NCBI GenBank assembly: GCA_023091735.1
Contig: JALKBU010001082.1
Location: 1 to 17,064 of the forward strand
Origin: Trichomonas tenax
Lineage: Eukaryota > Parabasalia > Trichomonadida > Trichomonadidae
Length of the DNA stretch: 17,064 bases
Reading direction: 5' to 3'
This document shows, piece after piece, positions 209 through 16,438 of the stretch; the first letter of the stretch is position 1, and every line of letters starts with the position of its first letter. The notes below the pieces were generated by a model. It was not told the origin of the DNA. It ran no database searches and saw nothing but the letters and a program-made list of their open reading frames with translations. The translations under genes and the position numbers were made by a program.

Positions 209-712
209 ATGAGCACAATCCGTGAGTATGTCACAGTCAATAAGTTAATTGAAGCACTTAATCCAATATTAGATGGTGTCAAACAAGTTGATGTTTACTT
301 TTGTGATTATGTTGAGAGCTTATATTATAAAGGAAAGTATAATATTAAACCAATTGCTTTTGCTTTTGATGGTCAATTAGTAGATAATGAAAAGATATGG
401 GATCTATTACCTGATATATTATATTTGACAAACTTGACGGATAAATGGTTTAAGAGAATTCCGTTAACAAAAATATTATGTCGTGTTATGATTAAAACAG
501 AAACAAAAGAATATAACGGATTTAAATATCATCCATCCAAAGTTCAAGAATTAGGAAAGGATCCAAAGGATCCCGGCTCAAAGAGCTATGAAAAGTTGCA
601 GAAGAAATTAGAAAAGAGATTGAGTGATGATAGAATAGCAAGAGTGAATAAATTAGCTGAAAAATGTAATATTGAAGAAGATTTTGATGAAATTGAAATT
701 GAAGACCTTTAG
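209..712 (+). CDS. Hypothetical protein, 167 aa, charged C terminus
   Basis: I do not recognise this protein. The first 100 residues look like a compact mixed alpha/beta domain. From about residue 105 it is charged: a Lys-rich linker, a helical segment at about 128-150, and an acidic tail rich in Glu and Asp. Two GC-rich hairpins (559-587) encode residues about 117-127 (KDPKDPGSKSY), which look like a flexible linker. The TAG stop at 710-712 lies inside another hairpin (704-715). The start at 209 is the first ATG after the T-rich promoter block. It is the first gene of the rightward arm, but its position alone does not reveal a role. Confidence 0.75.
   Translation: MSTIREYVTVNKLIEALNPILDGVKQVDVYFCDYVESLYYKGKYNIKPIAFAFDGQLVDNEKIWDLLPDILYLTNLTDKWFKRIPLTKILCRVMIKTETKEYNGFKYHPSKVQELGKDPKDPGSKSYEKLQKKLEKRLSDDRIARVNKLAEKCNIEEDFDEIEIEDL
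559..587 (+). repeat. GC hairpin pair a, inside the 167-aa gene
   Basis: Hairpin 1 is GGATCC-AAA-GGATCC (559-573; 6-bp stem). Hairpin 2 is GGCTC-AAA-GAGCT (575-587), with four Watson-Crick pairs and a terminal G.T. The linker is one base. Both sit in coding sequence. Confidence 0.8.
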
Positions 713-730
713 GTCCAGAGCCAGAGGCTC
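704..730 (+). repeat. GC hairpin pair b, over the stop codon of the 167-aa gene
   Basis: GACC-TTTA-GGTC (704-715) contains the TAG stop codon. It is followed by GAGCC-AGA-GGCTC (718-730). The pair lies between two convergent genes and could also serve as a 3'-end or terminator signal. Confidence 0.75.
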
Positions 731-743
731 ATCCTGAAGCTCT

Positions 744-1112
744 TTAAGTTGAATTTAATACTGCAATGATTTGATTTATTCTATCCTCAATTACATTTAT
801 TCTTTTTGTTAAATCTTCTATCTTCATTAATGCGGTCACTCTTGATTGAGGAATTGATTTTAAACTAACTACACCCTTTATTTTTGTAATTTTAAAACCA
901 TCAATTTTAAACATTTTATTCAATTTACATGTTGTGTTTTCTTCAAACATTTCTTTATTATTTGCATAATACTCATTAAATTCATCAACAGTTTCAAATG
1001 TTGTTGACTCGGTAATTGGTTTTATTATTTTTAGTTTTGTTTCTTTTTATTCTTGTTCAATTAAATTTAATTCTTCATTATCTTTTTCATTTATTTTTAA
1101 AATTGGTTTCAT
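744..1112 (-). pseudogene. Small leftward gene broken by an in-frame TAA
   Basis: A reading frame starts at the ATG whose first base is 1112, just downstream (on the minus strand) of a T-rich promoter-like block. It runs to a stop at 744 but is interrupted by TAA at codon 22 (1049-1047). The downstream part continues in the same frame for 100 codons, including an internal ATG at 950 that would give a 68-aa product. The C-terminal 35 residues look like an amphipathic helix or coiled coil (LTKRINVIEDRINQIIAVL). A single-base change explains the stop, for example from GAA or CAA. I do not recognise the family. It is most likely a nonsense-mutated gene of about 122 codons; translation from the internal ATG is possible. 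Confidence 0.6.
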
Positions 1113-1173
1113 TTAATATTAATAAAAATCTTAATATATCAACATAAATTAGTTTTTTATTCATTAATAAAAT
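1113..1173. promoter_or_regulatory. Divergent promoter region between small genes
   Basis: The 61 bases separate the start of the broken leftward gene (1112) from the rightward gene at 1174. Each side carries a T-rich block: TTTTTATT facing left and TTTTTTATTCATTAATAAAAT facing right. This supports 1112 as an original start codon. Confidence 0.5.
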
Positions 1174-1395
1174 ATGGCTGCTGGAATATTTGGTAAAATA
1201 TGGAGAGGCATCAAGAACGCCGCTAAATGGGTTCATGATAAAGTAATAAAACCTGTTGCTAAAGCTGTTGCACCAATAGCGAAAACAGTTGGTACTGTAC
1301 TAGGTGGAATATTTGGAGCTAAAGCAGGGAACCCAGCAATGGGTGCACAAGTTGGAAATGCTGTTGGTGGGTTAGTTGAGCAGATTGCGAAGTGA
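1174..1395 (+). CDS. Small amphipathic, Gly/Ala-rich protein (73 aa), candidate membrane-active virion peptide
   Basis: The N-terminal half (MAAGIFGKIWRGIKNAAKWV and following) is a basic amphipathic helix. The C-terminal half is Ala/Gly-rich with small-residue helix-packing patterns (GGIFGAKAG, GNAVGGLVEQ). This resembles membrane-disrupting capsid peptides such as the N-terminal helix of adenovirus protein VI, though no homology can be claimed. It lies just before the capsid gene and faces a second small protein that also begins MAAG(I/L)F (1431-1661), which suggests related function or ancestry. A role in membrane penetration or capsid-DNA contact is inferred. A toxin- or antimicrobial-like peptide is an alternative. 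The start follows the common T-rich/ATAAAAT signal. Confidence 0.75.
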   Translation: MAAGIFGKIWRGIKNAAKWVHDKVIKPVAKAVAPIAKTVGTVLGGIFGAKAGNPAMGAQVGNAVGGLVEQIAK

Positions 1396-1430
1396 CAAAA
1401 ATAAATTTATTTTTACAACCTTATATTATG

Positions 1431-1661
1431 TCACTTCAATATTGGGGCTAATTTATTGATAACATTCCCAGTTGTATCCAATACTTGTTTAACCTTTGGA
1501 CCATGTACTGATGATATATTTATTGCCATATCACTTATTGCTTCAGCGTGTGGAAGTATTTTATCCTTCACGAAATTCACAGCGCTCTTTCCTGGTTCCC
1601 ACACCCTTTTCACACCTCTTTTGACTTTTTCCAAAAGTTTCTTAAACAGACCCGCAGCCAT
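1431..1661 (-). CDS. Small basic amphipathic protein (76 aa), partner of the 73-aa protein
   Basis: I choose the ATG at 1661 over the in-frame ATG at 1700. It gives MAAGLFKKLLEKVKRGVKRV, matching the start of the neighbouring 73-aa protein, and it directly follows a promoter-like AATTTTTTAATTCATTTTAAAATA. The N terminus is a strongly basic amphipathic helix; the rest is predicted helical, with no cysteine and no clear domain. It converges with the 73-aa gene, with 35 bases between stops. The family is unknown. I infer a membrane-active or DNA-condensing virion component. Confidence 0.65.
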   Translation of the reverse strand: MAAGLFKKLLEKVKRGVKRVWEPGKSAVNFVKDKILPHAEAISDMAINISSVHGPKVKQVLDTTGNVINKLAPILK

Positions 1662-1700
1662 TATTTTAAAATGAATTAAAAAATTGATTTTATAATTCAA
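1662..1700 (-). promoter_or_regulatory. Promoter-like T-rich block for the 76-aa gene
   Basis: On the minus strand this reads AATTTTTTAATTCATTTTAAAATA directly before the ATG at 1661. It supports that start over the upstream in-frame ATG at 1700, which would fall before the block. Confidence 0.45.
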
Positions 1701-1725
1701 ATATTATTTTTTTATTTATACATAA
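1701..1725 (+). promoter_or_regulatory. Capsid gene promoter motif
   Basis: ATATTATTTTTTTATTTATACATAA immediately precedes ATG at 1726. The ATATTATTTTT core recurs exactly before the ATPase gene (3351-3361), so the two genes probably share timing of expression. Confidence 0.55.
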
Positions 1726-3344
1726 ATGACAACGAACTATTTGATTCCAAACACGAAACCAATTAATGGCAACGTTTTCCATTCATTTGAAAAGATAAAC
1801 GATGTCTTCGCCAAAAATGATGGTAGAAGATATTACAGAGAACTTGAAAATTCATGTTTCGATAGTGACGCTCCTTATAATTTTACAAAGCAAACTCATC
1901 TTAAAATCACTAATAATGCTCATGATGTTAATCAGTTAGGAGATACATATATTAAACGTAGAGTTAAAGCAACGATTGAATCAGATACAGCCTTTACCTG
2001 TGATGATAAATTTAAATGTTTAAAGTTATTCATTGGTTATAAATCAAGTAATCAAAGCATGAGACAATTAGAGGTTGAAACAGATAGGGGTGATGCTGGA
2101 TATTTACAAATGGAGATGTCCCGTGAATCTTTCGCTTTTGCGACATATAAACCAAAGTCAGAAAATTTACTCATTCATTATATAATAATGTTCAAAAATA
2201 TGATAACTCAGTATGTGGAAAATATATTGACCCATCAGAAGTATTCACAGCTGCTGGCGCTAGTACTACTGTTGAGTTTGATTTAATTATTCCAGTTAAT
2301 GATCTATTAGCATTTCAGGCTTTTGATGATTATCCAAAAACATTTGGTGAAATTATTCTTAAATATTATGTTGATAAAGACTCTATAGTTTTCTGTCAAG
2401 TGGATCCATTACGTGTTGCTGATTTACAGAATTACGTTTATGAAAAAATTACTGATGCAAATTATGCCAAAATTTTAGGGCAATCATTTAAATATGATAG
2501 GAAATTTACCCAGATTGGAATGCCTGCCAATTTAATCTCTGCCATTGCAGCTACTGATCCAAATCCAACAATTTCAAAGGTTACGTTACGATGTACAGAT
2601 TTAGAAGTCATGGAAGATAAAGCAATTATCCCCGGTTATGGATTAACTGAAGAATCAATTAGAGCAATTCCAAAACTATTCACACCACAAGATCCATATT
2701 TCATCCCAGCACAACAAATCGACGTCAGGAGCTTAAATAATGGTTGCGTTTCAGCTGAAGGTATTAGTTCCGATTTCACTTATGCACTTCACAACGTGTC
2801 AGATATTGTTTTAGCATTTCCTAAATCTCCACTTCAAAGGACATGTTTTGAAAATCCAATGTTGCGTGGTCTTCAGATCACAGTTGATGGCAGAAATTAC
2901 CCAGAGAAGGATATGATGACTGTTGGTGATATATTCTTTACTCGAATGCTTCAGGCTTCAGATTTAGATGGAATTCATGAATGCACAGAAGAATATGAAG
3001 ATTCACTTACTAGACCATTAAATGCTGATGACGGCAAACCATTAGCGAGAACATGGAAAGATCAAACATCGTTCTTATGCACAATTCCAACTCAGAGAGA
3101 TGGTGCTGGTATCTTCTTCGATGGTATAGAAACTGGTAATACAAGTGTAACAGTTGCTTTAAAGGCATTCCCAATTTATCAAGGTGCAAATGAAACATAC
3201 TGTTCAAAGGTTACAACTCCACCTCAGTTCTGGTTCACACGCACGACATATTGGACATGGGATCCACAAAATGGTTTAAAGTATCATAAAACAGGATGTC
3301 CAGAGCAGTTCAAGAGTCAATACGATATAGATAATAATTTATAA
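1726..3344 (+). pseudogene. Putative major capsid protein (double jelly-roll), split by a -1 frame change
   Basis: The gene starts at ATG 1726 and reads in one frame to a stop at 2286. The following coding sequence is open one frame earlier, from 2151 to the stop at 3344. Together they give about 539 aa, the usual size of a Polinton capsid protein. Both halves are beta-rich. The second contains VEFDLIIPVNDLLAF and an aromatic C-terminal strand region (PPQFWFTRTTYWTWD), which fit Polinton double-jelly-roll capsid proteins. It lies directly before the packaging ATPase, as in other Polintons. The frame must change between 2151 and 2286, most simply at 2163-2169. A one-base loss in the A/T run explains it; programmed -1 slippage is the alternative. 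The capsid assignment rests on size, composition and context, not on a search. Confidence 0.7.
2163..2169 (+). other. Slippery heptamer A AAT TTA at the capsid frame break
   Basis: In the upstream reading frame the codons are GAA-AAT-TTA, so the heptamer is in the correct phase for -1 slippage. The downstream open frame is exactly the -1 frame. A AAU UUA is the known slippery sequence of Rous sarcoma virus. I see no strong stem-loop 5-9 bases downstream, so a plain deletion remains more likely. Confidence 0.35.
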
Positions 3345-3350
3345 GGAAAA

Positions 3351-3372
3351 ATATTATTTTTGTAAATATAAA
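3351..3372 (+). promoter_or_regulatory. ATPase gene promoter motif
   Basis: ATATTATTTTTGTAAATATAAA lies between the capsid stop (3344) and ATG 3373, and shares its ATATTATTTTT core with the capsid promoter. Confidence 0.5.
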
Positions 3373-4214
3373 ATGACTAAATGGTTTAAAAACCCTGAGA
3401 CACAAAGCGTCGAACTCCAAGATGTTTATAATGTATATATTGATGACATGATTAAAGAGGAACTAAATAAAAATAGAAATTCTTTATCGAAAGAAATTTT
3501 GAGTAAAATACCTTATTCAAATGTATATTATAACTCCATAACTGCTGCAATAGGTAAACAATTTAAAGGTAAAACGCTATCTATCATTAAAGAGATTATT
3601 ATTATATCAAATACATCTCCAAATTCTCATGCATTAATATATATATTAATCGTACAGGTAGTGAATGTGATGACACATTTGAATCATTAAAACACCTCAT
3701 TTATATTCCAATTATTTATTTGTCGCATGATGAAGCAGAAGATTATTTAAAGAAATTAATAATGTATAAAGAATTATATAATCAAATCAAAAAGGAAAAT
3801 TTAGAGGATAAAATAGTTGATGAACAAAAAGAAGATTTATTTAAAACATTATTTGTTAATGATTTCAGTCGTGAATTCCTTCATACTTTGGTATTTCTCG
3901 ATGATGCTGTAAAATCAAAATTAATAAGTAATGAAAAATCATATTTTAATCAACTCCTTACACAATGTCGTCACATTCAATGTTCATTCTTTATGGCTGT
4001 TCAATATTTTAAAGCCCTCTCTACAAATATTAAATCAAATATTTCAACATTATTTATATTCTCAGGTTTTAGTCGTCAGCAATTAAATGTTATGCTGTAT
4101 CAGGTGAACTTACCAATGTCAATTAATGAGCTTTATTATAAATATCAACAGTTAGGAGAACATGGAAAGTTAATAGTTGACACTGTTAAAGGATTGGTTA
4201 CTTTTTCTGATTAA
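3373..4214 (+). pseudogene. A32-like DNA-packaging ATPase, frameshifted
   Basis: The first open frame (105 codons, 3373-3690) carries a Walker A motif GKQFKGKT at residues 61-68. The second (open from before 3650 to 4214) carries a Walker B-like strand ending LVFLDDA and a downstream sensor-like region. Both belong to one protein of about 280 aa, the size of FtsK/HerA-superfamily packaging ATPases of the vaccinia A32 type. Such an ATPase pumps viral DNA into the preformed capsid. The frame changes by -1 in an AT dinucleotide run at about 3633-3650. No slippery heptamer is present there, so a one-base deletion or sequence error is likely. The downstream segment has no convincing ATG of its own, which argues against two separate genes. 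Confidence 0.75.
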
Positions 4215-4227
4215 AAATATATATTAA

Positions 4228-4252
4228 TTTAATTTTTTTATTCTAAATAAAC
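4228..4252 (+). promoter_or_regulatory. Promoter motif of the 318-aa gene
   Basis: TTTAATTTTTTTATTCTAAATAAAC precedes ATG 4253, following the element-wide pattern of a T-rich block followed by AAATAA. Confidence 0.5.
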
Positions 4253-5209
4253 ATGGCAGAAATTGGAAACTTATTACAAACACAACTTAGACCTGGTACT
4301 TACACTAAAGGAGCAAAAGCGGGTCAGAATTATCCTCGTCAAATGTCTGTTCCTGATGGAATGAAGGAATTAGTTCATATTGTCGCAGGTCTTCAAAAAG
4401 ACATTAAGCAGATGAAAAATGTCCTTACATTACCAGAAGCAGAAGCATATGCAAAAAGGCAGGGTCCAAATTGGGAAGCACATGAAGCTGATATTACAGG
4501 TCCAGATAATAAACCAGATGGTGTTCCTGAAGTTTTTATTACAGATGCCAAAGGAAATATTAAAGTTATCAATGGTTATAAACTAAAAGCTAGTAATTAT
4601 GCAAAGAGAAAAGCTTATAACGCAACGTATCCAATGCAATTTGATCCAAATGGAAAACCAATTAAACAATACATTGGAGAAGGTGAAAATGGACCTATAA
4701 ATTCATATAGAATGGAACCATATTCAAGATTTATTGAAGAAATGAATTCAATTGGACCGGGTGAAGGTGGATTACCAGTTTATACTCATAATTTGGAAGG
4801 TCAGTTTGCAAGAGTACAGAAGCCAATAACTCCAAAGAAGTATTTCAAGGTTTCAATAATTGATCAATTCACGGATGGAATTAAAGCACAACTTAAGCAG
4901 CAAGGCATCCCCGCAATTAGAATAGCGAGACAAATTAGTGATTTGATTAATGTCGCATTCACTAACTTCATTAAGAAACGAGTGTATGCTGAAAAATATA
5001 ACTTGAATTATGATCAGGTTGCTGACAAAGACAAGAGAAAGATTGAGAAATCGAACGAGTTCAAGGATTCTTGCTATCAATTGATATCTCATATATTGAA
5101 TAACGAAGATGAGTTTGATAGAGTCAGAAGATTTATTTTAAATGATGCTCAGGCTCAACCTCCAATTCCTCAAGACGTTCCACCAGAGGTAATGGTAGAC
5201 TATAACTAA
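4253..5209 (+). CDS. Hypothetical 318-aa protein of the morphogenesis cluster
   Basis: I do not recognise the family. The protein is soluble-looking, rich in Lys, Pro, Gly and Gln, with no membrane segment or signal peptide. Residues about 1-90 include a helical stretch ([20 protein letters not shown]). Residues 90-200 are Gly/Pro/Asn-rich and probably beta or irregular. Residues about 200-295 are helical and basic, containing two predicted long helices, and the C-terminal tail is Pro-rich. It lies immediately after the packaging ATPase with its own promoter motif, so a structural or packaging accessory role is an inference from position only. It contains no GC hairpins and no break. Confidence 0.8.
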
Positions 5210-5220
5210 AATTTTAATAA

Positions 5221-5247
5221 CATTTTTATTTATTTATTTATAAGTAA
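5221..5247 (+). promoter_or_regulatory. Promoter motif of the 232-aa gene
   Basis: CATTTTTATTTATTTATTTATAAGTAA runs up to ATG 5248. The repeated TATT units form a particularly long T-rich block. Confidence 0.5.
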
Positions 5248-5946
5248 ATGAGAAGAAGATTTACATCGCAGAAGAACACAAATGCAAAGGCTGAAATAAC
5301 GGTTGGTTATAATGTCAATGATGATAAAAGTAAAGTGATTCAGAATGTCAAGGTTAATGTTTCACCAGATTTTGGAAAACTAGAGAGGTCCTTAACTCAG
5401 CCAAATTTAACAGTAAGAGATACAAAAAATGATGAAGAAAGTGAAGGTATAGTATTAGCTGAGCCGGGAAAGGAGCCAGTGACAGTTCATTATGATCCAC
5501 CCCCGACATACGGCTCTTCGAGCCTCAGCCCCAATGGGGCGTATACACCACCAATTGAAGGTGAATATAAGAATCCATACATTACATCATTAGATACAGA
5601 ATTAATGAAAATATACAGAGACATCATCACTGATAATTATGACTCAGTTATTAATTTAATTGATGATTCAGGTCTAATAATTTTACCTTATGAGGATTTA
5701 ATCCATATCATTGCTGTATTATGTGAAGTTCAGGATTCAGATGTTAAAATTCAATATTTCATTGATGATGAAGTTTCATGTTGCTCAACAGTTGCTAAAC
5801 TTTCACCGATCAAAGAGATTAATACAATAAAGGTTACAAAGAATGGAGTCACAAATGATTTGAATTTATCATACAATAACATATATAATAAAATAGTTGA
5901 TGAATATAAAATTTCTCTCGAGCGTTTCTTTGTAAAAATAATTTAA
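5248..5946 (+). CDS. Hypothetical 232-aa protein with disordered N-terminal half
   Basis: I recognise no family. Residues 1-110 are basic then acidic and Pro/Ser-rich (PPPTYGSSSLSPNGAY) and look disordered. A GC hairpin pair (5512-5540) encodes residues about 89-98 in this region. Residues 115-232 look like a folded alpha/beta domain with hydrophobic strands (SGLIILPYEDLIHIIAVL) and paired cysteines at SCCS. No membrane segment is convincing. It follows the 318-aa gene at short spacing and ends in TAA four bases before another hairpin pair. A virion or assembly role is inferred only from the surrounding genes. Confidence 0.75.
   Translation: MRRRFTSQKNTNAKAEITVGYNVNDDKSKVIQNVKVNVSPDFGKLERSLTQPNLTVRDTKNDEESEGIVLAEPGKEPVTVHYDPPPTYGSSSLSPNGAYTPPIEGEYKNPYITSLDTELMKIYRDIITDNYDSVINLIDDSGLIILPYEDLIHIIAVLCEVQDSDVKIQYFIDDEVSCCSTVAKLSPIKEINTIKVTKNGVTNDLNLSYNNIYNKIVDEYKISLERFFVKII
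5512..5540 (+). repeat. GC hairpin pair c, inside the 232-aa gene
   Basis: GGCTC-TTC-GAGCC (5512-5524), linker TCA, then GCCCC-AAT-GGGGC (5528-5540). Both are perfect 5-3-5 hairpins. Confidence 0.85.
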
Positions 5947-5949
5947 TAT

Positions 5950-5978
5950 GGCTCTCAGAGCCTCAGAGCCTATGGCTC
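5950..5978 (+). repeat. GC hairpin pair d, between convergent genes
   Basis: GGCTC-TCA-GAGCC (5950-5962), linker TCA, then GAGCC-TAT-GGCTC (5966-5978). It lies between the stop of the rightward 232-aa gene (5946) and the end of the leftward 157-aa gene (5988). It is the only pair lying fully in noncoding sequence, apart from the pair over the stop at 710-712. It could form the 3' end of both transcripts. Confidence 0.85.
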
Positions 5979-5987
5979 ATACTCCAT

Positions 5988-6479: not shown

Positions 6480-7286
6480 ATGTCAATTATTAATATAATT
6501 TCAAATAATATTTGTGAATTAAATTTAAATGTTACTGGAATCTTTAACGTTTCCCTAATATCTGTTTCAGGTAAATTTAACTTAATTATTTTAAACGTTG
6601 ATGACTTAATTACCTTTTTAATTGAGGATAAGCCATATGATATATTTGTTAATGATATAATTAGTAAGGGGGATATATCAACACATTTAGAATATTTAAA
6701 TTCTGTTTTCACTAGTTGGTATGTTGATAAATTCAGTCAGAATCCACCAGGTCAATTTGAAGTTGACGGATTAAATGGTATTGTTCATTTTCCATTAAAA
6801 ATTAAATATTGCACAGAACGATTCAAAAATTTATTAGGTATTATTAATATCACAGAACCATTATTAATGGGTCAAATCGGATATAACGACAATGGACCCA
6901 GTTTCTTTATGATAAAATGTGATAAATTGAACTCACCAATGAGGTTTTCACATCAAACAATAGATAAAAACATTTACCCAGCAATCACTAATGTTGTTAG
7001 TTTAAATTTAAATAACTTTTCGTTATCATATCCATTCCAACTCCAAGGGAACTCATTTATTTTATCATCAAAAGATTTAGTCGGTTTAAAATTTAGTATT
7101 ACAGATATTAATGGCGAAAATGTCGAGTTCATGAATGAAATATTATGGACATTTCAGATTGAGAAAATTGCAAATGAAATAATGCCAGATGAAGTAATCA
7201 GTAGTCCACAGGACATAGGCTACGCAAACGGGCTTTCAGCCCTGAGCTCCGAAGGAGCGAATGAGCAGGCACCACCCACACAATAA
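6480..7286 (+). CDS. Putative minor capsid/penton-like beta-sandwich protein (268 aa)
   Basis: The protein is dominated by predicted beta strands. Its C-terminal part has the pattern of strand, LVGLKFSITDINGENVEF, then EILWTFQIEKI, which resembles the second beta-sandwich of penton-like proteins in Polintons and virophages. Its length is also in that range. I base the call on pattern and position only, so it is tentative. The last 30 residues are a disordered tail; a GC hairpin pair (7230-7258) encodes residues about 251-260 (NGLSALSSEG). The start follows the shared divergent promoter. If correct, it would form the capsid vertices beside the fibre gene that follows. Confidence 0.55.
   Translation: MSIINIISNNICELNLNVTGIFNVSLISVSGKFNLIILNVDDLITFLIEDKPYDIFVNDIISKGDISTHLEYLNSVFTSWYVDKFSQNPPGQFEVDGLNGIVHFPLKIKYCTERFKNLLGIINITEPLLMGQIGYNDNGPSFFMIKCDKLNSPMRFSHQTIDKNIYPAITNVVSLNLNNFSLSYPFQLQGNSFILSSKDLVGLKFSITDINGENVEFMNEILWTFQIEKIANEIMPDEVISSPQDIGYANGLSALSSEGANEQAPPTQ
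7230..7258 (+). repeat. GC hairpin pair e, in the 3' end of the 268-aa gene
   Basis: GGGCT-TTC-AGCCC (7230-7242), linker TGA, then GCTCC-GAA-GGAGC (7246-7258). A weaker GTCC-ACA-GGAC lies just upstream (7204-7214). The pair encodes part of the disordered tail. Confidence 0.85.
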
Positions 7287-7298
7287 ACTGAATAAAAA

Positions 7299-9329: not shown

Positions 9330-10968
9330 TCAAAATTTATCAAAATAGTAACGAGTGATAAAATATATTGGAACTTCTATTATTTGATTGCTTACCTTAA
9401 CTAAAGCATTACCATTAATATATCGTATAAATTCACCTACTGTGTCAAATCGACGTCTTCTTTTTGTCATTGATTTATCAGTTTTTCCATAATCAAGATG
9501 TATCATTACCTTATCACCCTCTTTAAAGTTCATTAGTCCATTTTTAATTTGCTCAGTTTTGATTTCATTCAATTTTTCAGTCTGTTTTCGTATGTATTCC
9601 CACTCTTTAGAAATATTGGTGTGCATTTCTATTGGTTTCATGTTTATCATTCTATGCCATGTGTTATTATAATAATAAACTAATTGTTGAATGATGTGGT
9701 CATGGTTACCATCCCAGTTAATTTGACCGTTAACACCTAAAGCATCCCTTAATGTTCTCATTACTGAATCAACTATTTTATTATGAAATGTATAAGGTGA
9801 TGATGAAAAGTAAAAGTTAATGTTTGGAAAATATTTATCCATTGCTGATTTAAAACCTTTATCGCCATCACCTCTGATATTATTAACCAGGTGATTAAAT
9901 CTTATTTGTTCCTGATCGATTAAATATTGAATTGCTTGCCTCGTTTCTTGCTCTGATTTATTCAATACCCTAATACAATACAAATATCTAGTATTAATGT
10001 TTATTGCGAATAAGTAAGTAATGTGTCCCTTTGAATGCTCTAAATGGTCAATTTCCCATGAATACGGTGAAGGTGCAAATGATGGACGACTAAATTTTTC
10101 TTTTAATGGTTGGATCTTTGGGTCATTTGGTTTAATCAATAAATCAAATTTACCTTTAAAATCTTTTTGTTTTCTTTCTGATTGAAATGGATAAGGTAGC
10201 GTAAATAATTCTTCATTTATTTTAGGTGGAGGTGGTAAATTATTTTGGCTCTTCGAGCCTGGGACCGAAGGTCCTTGGATTTTTATTTTATCCGCTTTAA
10301 TTTGTTTAGATTTGGGTAATTTAGGTTTGTTATATATTTCAGGGTGAACACGGTTAATTTGTTTTAAATATGCTGTATATAATGGTTTGATATACTTTGA
10401 TGCTTCTATTTTATGATTTAAAATGAATTCGAGCAATTGATCCTCAGTCAATAATGAAGCGTTTGATGGTTTCACTAATGCATCGTAAATTATGGCTTGA
10501 GCCTCATTAATGGTGCTCTGCACCTGGGTGCTATGCGCCTTTATTTGTTGAATATTCTGAGATAAAGTTTTTGGCTCTTTGAGCCTGGGACCGAAGGTCC
10601 TTGGTTTTTTGGGTGGTGGTTGTTGCTGTTGAGGTGATTTTTTATGCTTAGATTTTGCGTTAGGATCATATAAATGATATAACTCATCAATATCTTTATC
10701 AGTTAAAATTGGATCTTTGAAATCTTTTAATTGTTTTAGTTGTGCTTTACTTTTACCTTCTGAATATCTTTTTTCTTGAATGTTATTTTTAATCTTACTC
10801 ATCACATACACATGTCTACGTTTTACTTCATTTGAATATTTTGGATAAAACATCCATATCATCACCCGTAATATTTTTGTCATACTTTTGAAGTATTGAT
10901 TTTAAATCATAATATGATAAATATGGTTTAGTACTTGCTAACTCATCAATAAGAATATTTAAGTCCAT
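9330..10968 (-). CDS. RVE-family (retroviral-type) integrase, +1 frameshift near the N terminus
   Basis: The 517-residue frame (10883-9330) holds a disordered Pro/Gln/Lys-rich N-terminal third, an RNase H-like integrase core and an SH3-like C-terminal domain (FKEGDKVMIHLDYGKTDKS onward). Catalytic candidates in that numbering are D279 (SWEIDH), D339 (RGDGDKGF) and D372 (FHNKIVDSVMRTLRD); the last is Asp where Glu is usual. It would insert the linear element DNA into host chromosomes. The true start is probably the ATG at 10968, behind a good promoter block. That frame runs to a TGA at 10830-10828, and joining it to the main frame needs one base skipped near 10837-10842, in a run of four A. 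Three GC hairpin pairs interrupt the Pro-rich third. It lies downstream of the 122-aa gene in the leftward arm. Confidence 0.9.
10247..10274 (-). repeat. GC hairpin pair f, in the integrase gene
   Basis: Plus-strand reading: GGCTC-TTC-GAGCC (10247-10259), linker TG, GGACC-GAA-GGTCC (10262-10274). It differs from pair h (10573-10600) by one loop base but is translated in another frame, giving GPSVPGSKS. Confidence 0.9.
10512..10539 (-). repeat. GC hairpin pair g, in the integrase gene
   Basis: Plus-strand reading: GGTGC-TCT-GCACC (10512-10524), linker TG, GGTGC-TAT-GCGCC (10527-10539; one T.G pair). It lies in the linker-like N-terminal third. Confidence 0.85.
10573..10600 (-). repeat. GC hairpin pair h, in the integrase gene
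   Basis: Plus-strand reading: GGCTC-TTT-GAGCC (10573-10585), linker TG, GGACC-GAA-GGTCC (10588-10600). It matches pair f in 27 of 28 bases but is read as TFGPRLKEPK, a different frame. Confidence 0.9.
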
Positions 10969-10990: not shown

Positions 10991-11000
10991 AACCTAGGGG

Positions 11001-11369
11001 TTACACGTTATTGTTGTTAGCCAAAATATTAAAACCATTAGCAATGTATTGATATGCCTGATTATGCGTTGGGTTTTCAAGTACTTGGTCAAATGGTGGT
11101 GTCCATATCTCCTCATGGTTACGGTAAAATCCAACGGTAGAAATATTATGTCCATTAAATTGAACCTCAGCGGTGTATCTGTTATCAACTCCATTACTTC
11201 TAATATTTAATCCATTACGACCAGCGGTATATCTTAATTCAGGCAAAGTGTTATTTTGTTGTCTAAGTTGATTATAACCTACTCTAAATGCATTTTCTGC
11301 TGCATTCATGGCTCTACGAGCCTGGACCCCTTGGGGTCTTCTACGTCTTGGTTGTCTGTTTCCACTCAT
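11001..11369 (-). CDS. Small Arg-rich protein (122 aa), possible nucleic-acid-binding
   Basis: The N terminus (MSGNRQPRRRRPQGVQARRA) is strongly basic. The remainder is Asn/Gln-rich with predicted short strands (ELRYTAGRNGLNIRS; RYTAEVQFNGHNISTVGFY) and a helical C-terminal segment. I recognise no family. The basic tail suggests binding to DNA or RNA, for example as a packaged core protein, but this is inference. Part of that basic tail (residues about 11-20) is encoded by a GC hairpin pair at 11310-11338, so some of the basic character may be incidental. It lies between polymerase and integrase with its own promoter block (11370-11392). Confidence 0.75.
   Translation of the reverse strand: MSGNRQPRRRRPQGVQARRAMNAAENAFRVGYNQLRQQNNTLPELRYTAGRNGLNIRSNGVDNRYTAEVQFNGHNISTVGFYRNHEEIWTPPFDQVLENPTHNQAYQYIANGFNILANNNNV
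11310..11338 (-). repeat. GC hairpin pair i, in the 122-aa gene
   Basis: Plus-strand reading: GGCTC-TAC-GAGCC (11310-11322), linker TG, then GACCC-CTTG-GGGTC (11325-11338). The first hairpin and linker match pairs f and h; the second has a variant stem. Confidence 0.85.
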
Positions 11370-11392
11370 TTATTTAAAAATAAAATATTCAA
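11370..11392 (-). promoter_or_regulatory. Promoter motif of the 122-aa gene
   Basis: On the minus strand TTGAATATTTTATTTTTAAATAA directly precedes ATG 11369, in the common pattern. Confidence 0.5.
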
Positions 11393-11421
11393 ATTGATTT
11401 TAAAGACTTACATAATTAGCA

Positions 11422-11447
11422 GAGTTTAAACTCCGGCGTAATACGCC
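11422..11447 (-). repeat. GC hairpin pair j, over the polymerase stop codon
   Basis: GAGTTTAAACTC (11422-11433), a 12-base palindrome, contains the polymerase stop codon. It is followed after one base by the perfect 5-3-5 hairpin GGCGT-AAT-ACGCC (11435-11447) in the last codons. The first arm is AT-richer than the other family members. Confidence 0.65.
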
Positions 11448-14400
11448 TCAGAGATAAAAGGCATACAACATCCATTTTCATGAACTACTGCTTTAGTGTG
11501 TGAACCTGTTAATGCTGTTTTATTGATTGATAACCTTGTCATTTGTCCATTCTTTAATTGTAGTCCTATATTCTCACCGTCATAAGTGACACCATTTTTA
11601 ACAACATTAAGGTATTTATCAGATGTTAATTGTTTGTTTTGTTTCATTGATACACCCTTCATTTTTAAGGCTAAACGTTTAAATGAATCTGTTCCAATTT
11701 CTCCGTTAAAAGATGTGTAGCATTTAGGACATAAAGCGATCATATTATCACCTTGTTTTTCGATTGTTAAACCTAATAATTTCTTTTCGTGTGCTTTTTC
11801 CTCTGCTTTATTATTTAATTTTGGTTTAAATTTATCATTGAAACAGAAGAAATCAAATGGTGCAAATTGATAAATATAACGATCATAAAATGTTTTATTT
11901 TTGATGATTGCCTGAAATGCTTGAGTGTTAGGTAGTGATGGATCACCAGCAATAGCCCAATATGAGGAATCAGTGTCACCCTCAATAAAATGAAATCTGT
12001 TCACATCCATGCACTTATACATGAAGTCATAAATAAAAACTAAATACCAATATTTAGCATTATCAAGAGTGAAGAATGCCTCTTGTAAACATGTATCACA
12101 GCGATAAAATCTATCTTTCATCATAACCTGATATGTATCTTCACCTATTTCACGGATGTTTTTGAATTTGTTTGACATACATGCAACACGTGCTTTTTGT
12201 TCATTCATAATTTTAGTTTTTGCATAATTTTGTGTGTTCATAGCATCATAACCATATGAACCATTTAATGAAATTTTACAGAATAAACCCTTTCCTTTAT
12301 TACCTTCTAACTCTGCTTTTTGTCTTTCATTCATGAACTCATTTGCAAATGTATTAAAACATGTGTTTTTAGTAAATGTTAATATTGATTGTATATCGTC
12401 AATGATAAAATGAAATCTATCTATAAGATACCATAAGTAGTATGATGAAAATGGCATGAATGTACCATGTGTACTTGCTAATTGAGTTAATTTCCTCTGT
12501 TTTTGATCTATGGGTAAATTGTTTGATTTCATGTAATTATACATAAATGAACCAATTGTTTTCTCATCGGTTGTTATTTCAAGATTTCGGATGATAGGTA
12601 AAAAGTTTATATATTCATTAATATATTGTTCATCAATGTGACCCTTAACCTCTGCAACAAAGAGGGTATCTTTTCTTCTAATAATACCCAATGCTTTTGC
12701 TTTCTTCGTTGCTGTATCACAAATTAAAACTTCATTTAAACGTCCTGGCATGTACATCCTACCGTTAGTGTATTTAATAAATTCATGCTTATTTGATGAA
12801 AACGATGAAGGATATAATGAATTAAAATCAACACCCACAAAATGTGTCATTATGTTATCAGTGTCTTTATTCGATACTGTTTTTGTTAATGGGTCATATG
12901 ATAACTTATTTATATGTGTAATTCCTTTAAGATTTACTCTATGCTGAACATTTGAAAGACCACCAGTGATACCATTACGGAGGATATGATATGCTTCAAC
13001 TGAATCTAAAGTCATTGGTAAATCATTTTTGAGTGCATAGTTTCTTAAATTAATTCTTAATCTTTGTATATCTTCATCTTTGTTAGATTTAACAACATTA
13101 CAATAACAACACATTAATTGACAATTTTCTTTTGTATGTGGTTTTTCATTATCTATTCTATCTAATGTTGGCTTGTTGTCATATGTAAATGCTTTACCAC
13201 ACATTTTGCATTTAGAAGATAAAATTAAATCATGGAAATATTGGTAATCATTCATTGAAACATTATTTTTAGTATCTCTTTTTGCCTTTTCATCTTGTTT
13301 CTTGTATGAATCAACTTTATATTTCCAATATTTTTTAGTTAATTCAAAATTCGATTCAATATCTTCCTCAGGGTATTTTTCATTAGGGTCAAAGTGTTTA
13401 TATGCTAAAGCGTAACGAATCATTGATGCATTAGATGAAAGACTTAAATTATGAAGCATGTCGATTTTATAAACAAATGTTTCCTCAATGATTTTATCAA
13501 TTGGATCAATCATGATTTCGACGTCTTTATTGCAGTAATGAATGAAGTAATCGAGACGGTTTTTAAAGTTTGCATAATCGGAAAGATAGATTTGATAATC
13601 AGAATCTGATATTGTTTCTTTTGTAAGTGCTGAATAAAATGATTCTTGTGTGAATGGTTCAGTCTTGAATAATTCAGTTTCCCAGTTCTCCCATGTGATG
13701 AATTGATAAGGAAAGAAAGACTTAACGCGTGATTTATTGTTTCCGAAATCTTGAGTGAATTGATCCAATGTACCACCTGCTATATAATTCCTGATGTCAA
13801 TAAATCTTAAACTATAAGGACACTCATTTTTCTTAACTGTTATTTGTTTAAATTGTGATGAGGAACCAAGGATAGATTTTATTTTCCATTTAGCTGTATT
13901 TAAGTCACGAAGAATAAGGTTTAAATCAAACTTTCCAGAGTTGAAACCAATAACATTAACTGTGTTAAATTCTTCATTTAATAACTCATTTAATTGTTCA
14001 TTATCTTCCAAATTAGTATATTGTTTAATATTTGCATCTGATACTTCTGCAGCAACATTAAATAACCACTCGATCCAATCCGCAATAAATGTCTCAGATG
14101 AGACTAAGCAAAAGTTTTTAGTAAATGTTCTAGAACGGGCTGGAAGCCCTGGGGCACTTTGTGCCGAGTCAGTTTTAACTGTCGATGAGACCATAAATGG
14201 TTTCAAGTATGCGTTTAATGTTGCACATTCTGATAATTGTAGTTCTTCATTTGTTTCTAATGTTTCAAAATCAAAAGTAATATAATATCTTGTGGGTCTA
14301 AAATACTCTTGTAAATTGTGGGCTAATAACCATTGATATATTTTTTGTTTTGTAATGTGTGGAGCATATGGTTGTTGAGTCTTGTTTAATTGAACATCTT

Positions 14401-14905
14401 GAATCAATCGACCATTGTTTTCTTTGCACTTTTCACAATGCTTAAGAAATCGTGACTGATGCTTTCTTTCTGGATCATCACGGATTGAATAAACCTCTTC
14501 TTTGCAATATGGACAAACTCTATAACCAGTTAATGATTCCACATCTGTTATTCTGTCGGCGTGAAGTTTACCACTCGGTGATTGAGTTAGGAGAATGTTA
14601 ACAATTGGAAATTCAGGATCTACGACAATAGAATCAATTAAATTAAATTGAACTTTATTTATATCAACATCATCAGGTTGTGGTTCTACAAAGTAATAAT
14701 CAATATTAATATTGAATTTACGACATAAATCCTCTGATTCTGATGAAACATCGAATCCTTCATATGCATCAATAGCCTCATTTAAATAACTTCTACGAGT
14801 TTTAGGATTAACACCATCAGGAATATTATAAAACTGTTTAAACTTCTTTTTTCCTTCAGCTCTAATACCATTGTCATTTAACATCGTTTTTACTTTTTGG
14901 CTCAT
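11426..14905 (-). CDS. polB: Protein-primed family B DNA polymerase (1159 aa) with an HNH-like insert
   Basis: It replicates the linear element from protein-primed ends. Exonuclease motifs: FDFET (D212/E214), FNSGKFD (N322, D327) and YCNKD (Y457, D461). Polymerase motifs: A, VDFNSLYPS (D693); B, KISLNGSYG (K877-G885); C, EGDTDS (D977/D979); and a KMKG segment near 1081-1084. Between exonuclease and palm lies an HNH-type zinc module: C566/C569, LDRID (581-585), H590, N594, C599/C602 and N603-K606. An N-terminal CPYC...HCEKC cluster (131-160) may bind zinc, as may CxxC pairs at 936/939 and 1059/1062. A hairpin pair encodes residues 247-257. The frame is intact throughout. Start 14905 follows a clear promoter block. 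A terminal-protein domain is not obvious. Confidence 0.95.
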   Translation of the reverse strand: MSQKVKTMLNDNGIRAEGKKKFKQFYNIPDGVNPKTRRSYLNEAIDAYEGFDVSSESEDLCRKFNINIDYYFVEPQPDDVDINKVQFNLIDSIVVDPEFPIVNILLTQSPSGKLHADRITDVESLTGYRVCPYCKEEVYSIRDDPERKHQSRFLKHCEKCKENNGRLIQDVQLNKTQQPYAPHITKQKIYQWLLAHNLQEYFRPTRYYITFDFETLETNEELQLSECATLNAYLKPFMVSSTVKTDSAQSAPGLPARSRTFTKNFCLVSSETFIADWIEWLFNVAAEVSDANIKQYTNLEDNEQLNELLNEEFNTVNVIGFNSGKFDLNLILRDLNTAKWKIKSILGSSSQFKQITVKKNECPYSLRFIDIRNYIAGGTLDQFTQDFGNNKSRVKSFFPYQFITWENWETELFKTEPFTQESFYSALTKETISDSDYQIYLSDYANFKNRLDYFIHYCNKDVEIMIDPIDKIIEETFVYKIDMLHNLSLSSNASMIRYALAYKHFDPNEKYPEEDIESNFELTKKYWKYKVDSYKKQDEKAKRDTKNNVSMNDYQYFHDLILSSKCKMCGKAFTYDNKPTLDRIDNEKPHTKENCQLMCCYCNVVKSNKDEDIQRLRINLRNYALKNDLPMTLDSVEAYHILRNGITGGLSNVQHRVNLKGITHINKLSYDPLTKTVSNKDTDNIMTHFVGVDFNSLYPSSFSSNKHEFIKYTNGRMYMPGRLNEVLICDTATKKAKALGIIRRKDTLFVAEVKGHIDEQYINEYINFLPIIRNLEITTDEKTIGSFMYNYMKSNNLPIDQKQRKLTQLASTHGTFMPFSSYYLWYLIDRFHFIIDDIQSILTFTKNTCFNTFANEFMNERQKAELEGNKGKGLFCKISLNGSYGYDAMNTQNYAKTKIMNEQKARVACMSNKFKNIREIGEDTYQVMMKDRFYRCDTCLQEAFFTLDNAKYWYLVFIYDFMYKCMDVNRFHFIEGDTDSSYWAIAGDPSLPNTQAFQAIIKNKTFYDRYIYQFAPFDFFCFNDKFKPKLNNKAEEKAHEKKLLGLTIEKQGDNMIALCPKCYTSFNGEIGTDSFKRLALKMKGVSMKQNKQLTSDKYLNVVKNGVTYDGENIGLQLKNGQMTRLSINKTALTGSHTKAVVHENGCCMPFISEAYYAGV
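14137..14165 (-). repeat. GC hairpin pair k, in the polymerase gene
   Basis: Plus-strand reading: GGGCT-GGA-AGCCC (14137-14149), linker TGG, then GGCAC-TTT-GTGCC (14153-14165). It encodes residues 247-257 (DSAQSAPGLPA), a loop between exonuclease motifs I and II. Confidence 0.85.
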
Positions 14906-14945
14906 TTATGTAAGAATAAAAAATAAAAAATAAAATAAAAATAAA
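14906..14945 (-). promoter_or_regulatory. Polymerase promoter motif
   Basis: On the minus strand a long T-rich tract (repeats of TTTTATTT) ends in TTCTTACATAA before ATG 14905. It is the longest T-rich block in the element. Confidence 0.5.
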
Positions 14946-14953
14946 GTTAATTT

Positions 14954-15217
14954 TTAAATCGAGTTTTTATTATACCAATTAAAAATTTCTATAACTCTAT
15001 CAATTGAGAAAACAATGTGGATGGTGGAGTCATGACTCATAAACTCTTCAAAATTAATTGTTCTGATAACAAATTCATTTCTTCCTTTTTGTTCTTTAAT
15101 TTCGATTAATAATATTGGCATTCCTTTATCATTAAATAGTGTATATTTTGAATGTGAAAGATGAAATTCTATACCTTCAAGTCTTAATATATCATCAAAA
15201 ATTAAACCATTAAACAT
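14954..15217 (-). CDS. Hypothetical 87-aa protein
   Basis: A small compact protein with alternating hydrophobic strands (LEGIEFHLSHSKYTLFND; MPILLIEIKEQ; NEFVIRTINFEEF) and an amphipathic C-terminal helix (VIEIFNWYNKNS). It looks like a small alpha/beta fold with no cysteine and no catalytic motif that I recognise. It lies between the 398-aa gene and the polymerase, with its own promoter block (15218-15237), suggesting a role with the replication genes. Function unknown. Confidence 0.7.
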   Translation of the reverse strand: MFNGLIFDDILRLEGIEFHLSHSKYTLFNDKGMPILLIEIKEQKGRNEFVIRTINFEEFMSHDSTIHIVFSIDRVIEIFNWYNKNSI

Positions 15218-15237
15218 TTATGTAAAAAATAAAATTC
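15218..15237 (-). promoter_or_regulatory. Promoter motif of the 87-aa gene
   Basis: On the minus strand GAATTTTATTTTTTACATAA precedes ATG 15217. Its final TTACATAA is shared with the polymerase promoter. Confidence 0.5.
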
Positions 15238-15241
15238 GTTT

Positions 15242-16438
15242 TTAAATACCAAACAAAGCATTAAAATAACATAAGTTTTTATCATCTTGAATATGACGAA
15301 CACATCTCAATTTACTAAGAAATGCATAACCTGAAACGTTAAACTTAATTCCAGTCTTATTTAATTTAATCACTTTAAATAAGAATGTATGAATGGCTAT
15401 ATAATGATGTGATGATGATTTATGAGTTGCTTCCATCTTCTCAGAAATGAATGAATAAATGTAATGCTTATATGTTTTCATGTCTTTTATGTTTTTGATA
15501 ACAAAAGGAATGGATCGCTCTACTTCATCCTCTTTTGGTGCAGTTCTTTCATATGTAACATTATGTGAATCTTCAACAATAAAACCACAATCACAAAGTA
15601 TTTTATAAGTACCTAATGTTTCTTTAGCAATTTGATCAAGTAATTCAAAAACTTTATCAACTCCTGTTACTTTATTTAAATAATAATTAATATATAATTC
15701 ATGATCTTCTTTTTTGATTGTATTAGTTCCATATGATACATGTTTTAATGCTGTCTTAAATTTTTCTTCGTCAATGGGTGGAGATAATAGAATGCAGGGA
15801 TATTCACTATCAATAAATTGTAATTTATGTTTCTTAATGTATTTTGTACCTTCTTCCGATAATGTTTCATCGAAACCGCCGTCTAATAAATTTTGTGTCG
15901 ACTCTTGAAAATAATTTTTATATCGTTCCTCATGTGATTTTTGAGTTTCTGATTCTGAGACTGGGATATTCATTAAATCCTCTATCTCAGTTTCAGTATA
16001 TTTTAACTCTTTAATTCTAGTATCTATTTCATCTCTTAACTTTTCCAATTGTTCAATTTCATTATTATAATATTCATCATCGTGTCTACGCTCTTCATAA
16101 AATTCATCAATTTTAGGGGGTTCGGTGCTTTGCACCTCGCCACTATGTGGCAAGACCGAAGGTTTAGACTCGGAGAGTCGTTCTTCAACTTTAGGGGGTT
16201 CGTCAACTTTAGGTTTGATGGGTGGTGAATCTTTAATTTTAGAGGGTAAATATAAAAACCTCATTATTGATTTCTTATTTAATTTACCACTATATTTAAA
16301 ATCATTTAATATATCAACAAGTGCTTTTATATTTTGCAAATATGATGGATATTCTCCATCTTCAAAATCATTCATTATTTTTGATAATTCTTTTCCAGTG
16401 AAGCCTAAAGACCTTAAATCAAATGTTTTAATACTCAT
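15242..16438 (-). CDS. Hypothetical 398-aa protein with coiled coil; candidate replication partner
   Basis: I do not recognise the family. Residues 1-65 look helical. Residues 68-112 are Pro-rich with three PPK(V/I)(D/E)E-like repeats, split by four tandem GC hairpins (16124-16179; residues 87-105). Residues about 113-155 are a charged coiled coil (EQLEKLRDEIDTRIKEL). Residues 190-398 look globular, with a CDCG pair near 288 and a C-terminal RHIQDDKNLCYFNALFG segment. That last motif (Asp...Cys-aromatic...Ala-Leu) recalls the nucleophile motif of OTU-type cysteine proteases, but it sits at the very C terminus, so a complete domain is unlikely. First gene of the leftward arm, upstream of the polymerase; a terminal-protein or primer-partner role is a possibility from position only. 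Confidence 0.75.
   Translation of the reverse strand: MSIKTFDLRSLGFTGKELSKIMNDFEDGEYPSYLQNIKALVDILNDFKYSGKLNKKSIMRFLYLPSKIKDSPPIKPKVDEPPKVEERLSESKPSVLPHSGEVQSTEPPKIDEFYEERRHDDEYYNNEIEQLEKLRDEIDTRIKELKYTETEIEDLMNIPVSESETQKSHEERYKNYFQESTQNLLDGGFDETLSEEGTKYIKKHKLQFIDSEYPCILLSPPIDEEKFKTALKHVSYGTNTIKKEDHELYINYYLNKVTGVDKVFELLDQIAKETLGTYKILCDCGFIVEDSHNVTYERTAPKEDEVERSIPFVIKNIKDMKTYKHYIYSFISEKMEATHKSSSHHYIAIHTFLFKVIKLNKTGIKFNVSGYAFLSKLRCVRHIQDDKNLCYFNALFGI
16124..16179 (-). repeat. GC hairpin cluster l: four tandem hairpins in the 398-aa gene
   Basis: Plus-strand reading: GGTGC-TTT-GCACC (16124-16136), GCCAC-TAT-GTGGC (16139-16151), AGACC-GAA-GGTTT (16153-16165; one G.T pair), GACTC-GGA-GAGTC (16167-16179). 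Linkers are two, one and one base. It is the largest cluster in the element, flanked by direct repeats of TTTAGGGGGTTCG (about 16113 and 16190). Confidence 0.9.

What the first reader, a model, noticed from the sequence alone, without database searches (positions are those of the whole stretch)
559..16179. A family of 26 GC-rich mini-hairpins (5-bp stem, 3-nt loop) in 12 clusters across the element
Clusters at 559-587, 704-730, 5512-5540, 5950-5978, 7230-7258, 10247-10274, 10512-10539, 10573-10600, 11310-11338, 11422-11447, 14137-14165 and 16124-16179. Most units are exactly 13 nt: GGCTC/GAGCC, GGACC/GGTCC, GGTGC/GCACC, GGGCT/AGCCC, GCTCC/GGAGC, GGCAC/GTGCC, GCCAC/GTGGC, GACTC/GAGTC, GCCCC/GGGGC, GGCGT/ACGCC. 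They are arranged in pairs with 1-3 nt linkers. Stem sequences change on both arms together while geometry stays fixed, which is covariation within one element. They stand out sharply from the AT-rich background. The nearest concepts I know are Rickettsia palindromic elements inserted in ORFs and the double-hairpin/GC-cluster elements of some mitochondrial genomes; I know of none described in Mavericks. They could be mobile micro-palindromes, protein-binding sites, RNA-processing or packaging signals.
Basis: partly seen in the sequence, partly recalled or inferred. Interest (0 to 1): 0.9.

Follow-up and report, generated by a model that had tools for sequence, protein, structure and literature searches.

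The report
Tiny hairpin hitchhikers in Maverick genes
Scattered through a virus-like Maverick element, and through its relatives in the same genome, are 21-33-letter pieces made of two tiny GC-rich hairpins that are present in some copies and missing from others; they are likely a new kind of very small mobile DNA that slips into genes without breaking the reading frame, and one family sits in the loops of older hairpins.

Summary
In detail: 18 perfect GC-rich 5-3-5 hairpins against 0.10 in dinucleotide shuffles, and 15 in ORFs against 0.095 in codon shuffles. Genome-wide, one stem (GGCTC) occurs 91 times with a 3-nt loop and 9 with a 4-nt loop. Other Maverick copies in the same genome carry different hairpin pairs and lack many of the window's, so these are insertions. 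Single units are 21-33 nt net; 23 of 23 ORF sites are multiples of 3 (33 of 34 alleles). Near-identical pairs occur at unrelated sites. Families: A, AC-hairpin-TGA-hairpin-G(A/T) with varying stems; B, hairpin-TG-hairpin; D, 21 nt. In 11 of 15 D matches D lies between letters 2 and 3 of an older triloop; of 8 copies fetched as a test, 5 pass the strict rule and 3 fit with a mismatch or wobble. None was found in 15 kb of other DNA. They work like mitochondrial GC clusters and double-hairpin elements, but sit in virus-like DNA, stay in frame and nest. Structure-guided insertion into single-stranded DNA is inferred; no enzyme was found.

The parts
1..137 (+). Left terminal inverted repeat of the Maverick-like element that carries the hairpins
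   Evidence: Inverted repeat 1-137 / 16928-17064, 97% complementary
559..587 (.). Double hairpin (559-573 6-3-6; 576-586 4-3-4) inside ORF 209-712 (DUF4108); absent as a net 30-nt insertion in L095; in L011 its first loop holds a 21-nt family D insert
   Evidence: (site 1)
704..730 (.). Double hairpin at the 3' end of ORF 209-712; net 29 nt, contains the stop codon; absent in L095
   Evidence: (site 14)
5510..5542 (-). Family A unit in ORF 5248-5946; the stretch 5508-5544 is 37/37 identical to a stretch inside the PolB gene of another copy (C919)
5948..5980 (-). Family A unit in the intergenic gap between ORFs 5248-5946 and 5988-6461; other copies lack it or carry other inserts there
   Evidence: (site 0)
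7228..7260 (+). Family A unit near the 3' end of ORF 6480-7286; gene end too divergent in other copies for a clean empty allele
10247..10274 (.). Family B double hairpin in ORF 9330-10883; net 30 nt, absent in L060 and others
   Evidence: (site 15)
10512..10539 (.). Family B double hairpin, second unit imperfect, in ORF 9330-10883; surrounding region poorly alignable between copies
10573..10600 (.). Family B double hairpin, 27/28 identical to 10247-10274, same ORF; surrounding region poorly alignable
11310..11338 (.). Double hairpin (5-3-5 plus 6-2-6) in ORF 11001-11369; no empty allele found
11422..11447 (.). Double hairpin over the end of the PolB ORF; lacking in L016 and L023, alignment not clean
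14135..14167 (+). Family A unit in PolB ORF 11426-14905; clean net 33-nt insertion, absent in L016, L017, L045 and L046 and in ten relatives at 52-64% identity; present, with 11 more residues, in P0001
   Evidence: site 13
16124..16179 (.). Compound of three perfect hairpins and one degraded one in ORF 15242-16438, in a region where copies carry different, fewer or no inserts
11426..14905 (-). PolB-type DNA polymerase ORF, holds one cluster and the edge of another
   Evidence: 9 of 14 aligned proteins match Pfam DNA_pol_B_2 (PF03175); the window's own copy has no match at E 0.01
16928..17064 (-). Right terminal inverted repeat

Best explanation
The clusters are insertions of mostly 21-33-nt units, each a pair of GC-rich triloop hairpins, that are present in some Maverick copies of this genome and absent from others, and that likely spread as non-autonomous mobile micro-elements by structure-guided insertion into single-stranded DNA. 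Shown: presence or absence at orthologous sites, near-identical pairs at unrelated sites, size and linker classes with their own conserved letters, frame-preserving net lengths in genes, and placement of the 21-nt class between letters 2 and 3 of an older hairpin's loop in 11 of 15 matches. Inferred: the folded single strand is what is recognised; single-stranded DNA exposed while the element's polymerase displaces a strand is the usual target, which would explain why they lie in Maverick DNA and in hairpin loops; an unidentified enzyme acts in trans; frameshifting insertions are removed by selection while the Maverick genes still work; and the arms stay matched because one is copied from the other.
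For: Geometry against controls. Presence and absence. One search gives 29 insertion sites with an alternative allele; 23 have Maverick ORF evidence and all 23 site representatives are multiples of 3 (33 of their 34 alleles; the exception is L099, net 29); the other six sites are 29, 29, 26, 25, 33 and 27. Same pair at unrelated sites: 37/37 between ORF 5248-5946 and PolB of C919; 18 of 45 similar pairs have both flanks below 0.5 identity, with cores up to 29/29. Junction repeats: 18 of 29 sites used, mean exact overlap 2.06 nt against 0.63, P = 0.0004. Family A, 16 sites: A1 and T16 invariant, G17 and A18 nearly so; 45 cells changed on both sides against 13.1 shuffled (0 of 500); only 4 of 156 paired cells are G-U. 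Loop placement: 11 of 15 D matches lie as RA|D|A in a triloop; 8 of the 11 have at least 4 perfect pairs across the junction, 3 fit with a mismatch or wobble; chance of such a 2|1 stem at a random junction 0.0078. D-less alleles with the hairpin in place: L117 against L029, 88/90 flank letters; L011 against the window, 86/90. Restriction: 34 of 40 loci fetched around GGCTC hairpins have a Maverick or cargo protein match within 600 nt; 0 hairpins in 15 kb at 10 other places.
Against: No transposase was identified; the Y1 family (PF01797) has no match in the genome. Families A and B have variable junction overlaps (0-5 nt), so a 2-nt duplication cannot be told from target preference or microhomology. 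The family A set was gathered by requiring near-paired stems, so percentage paired is by construction; orientation was chosen by the linker, which helps the TGA signal; the two measures that count pairs and types are reached by 11 and 18 of 500 shuffles. Four of the 15 D matches do not show the loop position (L016 minus strand, L052, L064, L074). Of the 8 D copies fetched as a test, the program's strict rule is met by 5; L116, L117 and L123 were judged by eye. Several of the 11 share one insertion by descent (about 8 sites), and for L016, L118, L119, L121 and L123 no orthologous D-less allele was found. Orthologous hairpins often carry broken pairs (L075, L076, L084, L091), so the structure is not strictly kept after insertion. 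The GGACC stem shows little genome-wide excess (12 against 7). The comparison sample outside Mavericks is small.
Confidence: 0.72

Rival explanations
1. Replication template switching without any dedicated mobility: a stalled fork jumps between Maverick copies at GC-rich hairpins and carries a hairpin pair to a new place, while snap-back synthesis keeps arms matched and flips loops.
For: Loop TTC against GAA, exact reverse complements, at one orthologous site (L015/L043 against L005/L036); 0-5-nt overlaps; stem-loop extension and templated insertions are reported for Pol theta (PMC11292364, passages).
Against: Boundaries coincide with the hairpin pair and its short conserved letters rather than random points; distinct size classes; D between letters 2 and 3 of a loop in 11 of 15 matches.
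Confidence: 0.15
2. RNA-mediated spread: small hairpin RNAs are ligated or reverse-spliced into loops of Maverick transcripts and return to DNA by reverse transcription.
For: Loop placement and conserved letters would fit RNA recognition (inference); RNA-mediated spread is suspected by the authors for yeast GC42 (PMC4478555, passages).
Against: Only 4 of 156 paired cells are G-U in family A; no RNA data; no reverse transcriptase was looked for.
Confidence: 0.1
3. De novo snap-back synthesis at breaks makes each hairpin from local sequence.
For: Would explain matching arms of arbitrary sequence (PMC11292364, start of abstract and passages).
Against: Clusters are 50-69% G+C in a 30% G+C element and near-identical pairs recur at unrelated sites.
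Confidence: 0.02
4. Fixed regulatory or packaging signals of the Maverick.
For: Many units, strong pairing.
Against: Number and position differ between copies, mostly inside ORFs.
Confidence: 0.02
5. Byp-like inserts skipped by the ribosome.
For: Short inserts in genes, as in Magnusiomyces mitochondria (PMC5009743, passages).
Against: 23 of 23 ORF sites have 3n net length, which skipping would not require.
Confidence: 0.04

Closest known systems
Mobile GC clusters of yeast mitochondrial DNA (GC42 and others)
   Same: Tens of nt, GC-rich hairpins, copy-number and presence/absence variation, short flanking direct repeats (AG or ACT), more changes in loops, merging of units (PMC4478555, passages and section 18)
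   Different: Mitochondrial; here in virus-like DNA, in-frame in genes, mostly 3-nt loops, conserved AC/TGA/GA letters, and a 21-nt class placed in loops
Mitochondrial double-hairpin elements (Allomyces) and repetitive hairpin elements of sponges
   Same: Adjacent hairpins, high GC in some, scattered and probably mobile (PMC2800124, passages; the Allomyces paper itself was not read)
   Different: Genome and host differ; nesting in loops and frame preservation not seen in the passages read
Rickettsia palindromic elements
   Same: Palindromic inserts inside ORFs that keep the frame (recalled; search listing only)
   Different: Bacterial and, as recalled, about 100-150 nt; no double triloop plan (recalled)
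Byp elements of Magnusiomyces mitochondria
   Same: Many short inserts within genes (PMC5009743, passages)
   Different: Byps disrupt frame and are skipped; these are 3n
REP palindromes and IS elements that insert into them
   Same: Short palindromes that are themselves insertion targets at a fixed point (PMC1525189, passages)
   Different: Bacterial; there a full IS inserts, here one hairpin unit inserts into another; no Y1 transposase found

Membership tests
Mitochondrial mobile GC clusters / double-hairpin elements | Ultra-short GC-rich hairpin units with presence/absence polymorphism | tested here: met
Mitochondrial mobile GC clusters / double-hairpin elements | Short direct repeats at the junctions | tested here: inconclusive
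   Overlap 2.06 against 0.63 nt over 18 sites, but 0-5 nt, and 0 at the D site used
Mitochondrial mobile GC clusters / double-hairpin elements | Located in mitochondrial DNA | tested here: not met
   Carrier has terminal inverted repeats, a PolB-type ORF and an A32-like ATPase match; copies lie in contigs of up to 132 kb
Rickettsia palindromic elements | In-frame insertion in ORFs | tested here: met
   23 of 23 ORF sites 3n, 33 of 34 alleles
Rickettsia palindromic elements | Length about 100-150 nt, bacterial genome (recalled) | tested here: not met
   Single units 21-33 nt net; assembly of 53.4 Mb
Byp elements | Inserts not constrained to multiples of 3 because they are skipped | tested here: not met
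IS200/IS605 and REP-RAYT systems (recalled) | Y1 (HUH) transposase in the genome | tested here: not met
   PF01797: 0 matches; control genomes ring in 5 of 14
Classical MITE (recalled) | Constant-length target-site duplication | tested here: not met
   Exact overlap 0-5 nt across 18 sites
Maverick/Polinton (the carrier) | Terminal inverted repeats and family B polymerase | tested here: met
Maverick/Polinton (the carrier) | Packaging ATPase | tested here: met
   Pox_A32 match E 5.4e-07 for ORF 3720-4214
Maverick/Polinton (the carrier) | rve integrase and double-jelly-roll capsid protein | tested here: inconclusive
   No such Pfam match for ORFs 9330-10883, 1726-2286 and 2400-3344; no PDB match for 9330-10883; these labels are by eye

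The most novel reading that the evidence does not exclude
A self-nesting class of micro-transposons: units of two triloop hairpins recognised by fold plus a few letters, hopping through single-stranded DNA of replicating Mavericks, with one family that inserts into the loops of its own kind, so that insertions branch like a tree and add short in-frame peptides to viral proteins.
Probability: 0.4. Interest if true: 0.95.

Novelty: new variant of a known kind. Interest (0 to 1): 0.85.

Why it matters
If right, mobile DNA can be as short as 21 nt and be defined largely by fold rather than sequence, outside mitochondria and inside virus-like genes. It would give a natural experiment on how ultra-short hairpin elements move, which the yeast GC-cluster authors leave open (PMC4478555, passages), and a source of in-frame protein novelty in Mavericks. 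The loop-placement rule makes a sharp, cheaply testable prediction.

Tried and rejected
Exact search of IMG/VR for a 28-nt pair: 0; for a family A pattern: 1 contig, with a lone hairpin at 42% G+C, taken as chance. PolB relatives in IMG/VR: none confirmed. Rfam on the window: 0. An automatic scan for outer stems around family A/B pairs found none; the loop position was then seen by eye in the D listing of the same call and tested on 8 fresh copies. GGACC stems give little genome-wide excess (12 against 7). Host naming: PolB matches T. vaginalis G3 protein P0020 at 92% over a third of the query region, but a host cyclin-like ORF has only three matches, at 39-51%, unnamed; I call the host a likely trichomonad, species unknown. 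Y1 transposase: none. Paper searches touching Mavericks, Polintons or trichomonads: 20 of 45 hits listed; 15 of 145; 20 of 52; 12 of 1,377; among the listed titles and abstract beginnings I saw none that describes such units; unlisted hits and papers outside the library were not seen. PMC5799277 (giant-virus hairpins) was seen in passages and concerns other sequences.
Full report
Observation. The window is contig C96, bases 1-17064, of a 53.4-Mb genome in 1528 contigs, with 137-nt terminal inverted repeats. It holds 18 perfect 5-3-5 hairpins with at least 4 G/C per stem where dinucleotide shuffles give 0.10, and 15 in ORFs where synonymous-codon shuffles give 0.095. Five-bp stems with other loop sizes show no excess. 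Genome-wide, GGCTC-N3-GAGCC occurs 91 times (reversed control 8) and the 4-nt-loop version 9 times (control 12). GGACC-N3-GGTCC occurs only 12 times (control 7).

The carrier. ORF 209-712 matches Pfam DUF4108, ORF 3720-4214 matches Pox_A32, and ORF 7319-9073 matches a phage baseplate-type C-terminal domain. The polymerase ORF 11426-14905 passes no Pfam model at E 0.01, but 9 of the 14 aligned proteins match DNA_pol_B_2. Relatives include T. vaginalis G3 proteins. A Maverick-like element in a likely trichomonad host is therefore inferred; integrase and capsid labels are by eye.

Insertions. Other copies in the same genome align to the window at 74-92% identity, and gaps fall on hairpin clusters. 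The clearest window case is 14135-14167 in PolB: net 33 nt, absent in L016, L017, L045 and L046 and in ten more distant relatives at 52-64% identity, so the empty state is likely ancestral; P0001 has an insert there and P0020 and P0059 do not reach the site. L017 has a different pair at another PolB site that the window lacks. Of the window's 12 clusters, an allele without the cluster is clear for 559, 704, 5950, 10247 and 14137; absent but not cleanly alignable for 5512, 10512, 10573, 11422 and 16124; unresolved for 7230 and 11310.

Lengths and frame. One search gives 29 sites (42 alleles) with at most 6 flank mismatches. For 23 sites, Maverick ORF matches support a coding position, and the best allele of each is a multiple of 3; of the 34 alleles at these sites 33 are, and L099 (net 29, 4 mismatches) is not. 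For site 8 only the left flank matches, and its position just after a start codon is read from the sequence. Net lengths there run from 21 to 54; those above 33 look compound or are poorly aligned. The other six sites: intergenic 29, ORF-end 29, and unassigned 26, 25, 33 and 27. Since 28-nt pairs give net 30 in genes but 29 at two places outside or at an ORF end, selection for frame is the likelier cause than a built-in length (inference from few cases).

Copies at unrelated places. Window 5508-5544 is 37/37 identical to C919:13930-13966 inside the PolB gene of that copy. Among 51 composites, 45 pairs had similar cores; in 18 of the 45 both flanks are below 0.5 identity, with cores from 24/28 to 29/29.

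Families. A: AC-hairpin-TGA-hairpin-G(A/T). In 32 scan rows the linker is T 28, G 26, A 23, the preceding letters A 24 and C 19, the following letter G 20. Sixteen distinct sites were aligned, after dropping 16 rows as misregistered, doubtful or same-site: A1 and T16 are invariant, 97.5% of cells pair, 45 cells changed on both sides (shuffled 13.1), 8 of 10 pairs with changes on both sides (shuffled 5.7, reached by 11 of 500), 20 further pair types (16.4, reached by 18 of 500). Near-pairing was a selection rule, so the informative parts are the diversity of pairs, the unpaired letters and the rarity of G-U (4 of 156). B (37 scan rows, redundant): hairpin-TG/TT-hairpin with T-rich flanks. C: 11+2+13 nt, net 27, two alleles at one site and a like unit at another. 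D: GGCTACGCCAGGACNNNGTCC, 11 genome matches at up to 2 mismatches against 0 reversed.

Junctions. For 18 of the 29 sites (dropped: ten with more than 3 mismatches or ambiguous alignment, and site 9) exact overlap averages 2.06 nt against 0.63 for random placement, P = 0.0004; values run from 0 to 5. For family A a 2-nt duplication and insertion 3' of GA describe the same data.

Loops as targets. In the D listing (7 rows), three copies sat inside a triloop. I then fetched 8 further copies. together list 15 rows (one search prints 13; L064 and L074 only). In 11 the D unit lies as RA|D|A in a triloop: L011, L016 plus strand, L050, L118, L119, L120, L121 and L122 with 4-6 perfect pairs across the junction by program, and L116, L117 and L123 by eye, with a mismatch or wobble close to the loop. 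So of the 8 fresh copies 5 meet the strict rule and 3 fit loosely. Not showing it: L016 minus strand, L052, L064 and L074. By flanks the 11 are about 8 independent sites. Alleles without D but with a hairpin at the place: L029 for L117 (88/90 flank letters), the window for L011 (86/90), L047 for L050 (78/90), L014 for L122 (73/90), L006 for L116 (73/90); for L016, L118, L119, L121 and L123 no orthologous D-less allele turned up. Chance of a 2|1 triloop stem of 4 pairs at a random junction is 0.0078. Larger nested inserts in L021, L052 and L062 seem to combine A- and D-like units (read by eye). Protein P0001 carries 11 more residues at the window's PolB site, which by reading the window's DNA would fall in a loop (protein level only).

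Where they are. I fetched 40 loci around GGCTC hairpins, from the places listed, which lists only part of the 91. Of these 40, 34 have a match to window proteins or to Maverick/cargo proteins within 600 nt; the exceptions are L006, L009, L013, L027, L040 and L041. Four comparison proteins were taken from these loci themselves, so this count leans upward.

Other assemblies.

Mechanism. Most likely: non-autonomous units, recognised as folded single strands, inserted in trans into single-stranded DNA exposed during Maverick replication or extruded as hairpins. Shown: insertion, recurrence, classes, frame, loop placement. Inferred: strand state, enzyme, replication link, arm copying. The Y1 transposase family is absent. 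An HNH-like motif inside PolB (PF01844 in 3 of 14 members) is a possible nuclease, untested. The loop TTC/GAA switch at one site fits arm copying or inversion at hairpins.

Known systems. Closest in working are yeast mitochondrial GC clusters (PMC4478555; passages and section 18), sponge and Allomyces hairpin elements (PMC2800124; passages), Rickettsia palindromic elements (recalled; listing) and byps (PMC5009743; passages). Membership fails on location, length or frame (table). I rate it a new variant of ultra-short hairpin mobile DNA.

Noticed in passing
window 13079-13210 (PolB residues about 566-609): An HNH-type motif (CxxC ... LDRIDN ... H ... N ... CxxCN) lies inside the polymerase and is conserved in the aligned relatives; Pfam HNH matches 3 of 14 members.
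   Followed up: partly
window 1726-3344 and 3373-4214: The capsid-like and ATPase-like genes each appear as two ORFs in different frames in this copy; described only.
   Followed up: no
window 7319-9073: A fibre-like protein with three 99-nt repeats and a phage baseplate/tail-type C-terminus (Gp10_C, PTR) in a Maverick.
   Followed up: no
L017 (C395) 415-9712: Gene order is permuted against the window: window 11445-16113 is followed by window 191-4711 in the same orientation.
   Followed up: no
window 16593-16724: Short AAGGGTAAAA-rich repeats near the right end (repeat family D4).
   Followed up: no
L005, L008, L022, L024 and others: A multi-copy cargo gene family (WIKEQF..., no Pfam match) in Maverick loci, a frequent site of hairpin insertions.
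   Followed up: partly
L024, ORF of 570 aa overlapping 6419: A host cyclin-like protein has only 39-51% matches while part of the Maverick PolB matches T. vaginalis at 92%: possible transfer of Mavericks between trichomonads, or a fast host gene.
   Followed up: no
L009, L013, L021, L107: A separate dispersed GC-rich repeat (AAGAAAGCGAAGGGC...) outside ORFs that I could assign.
   Followed up: no
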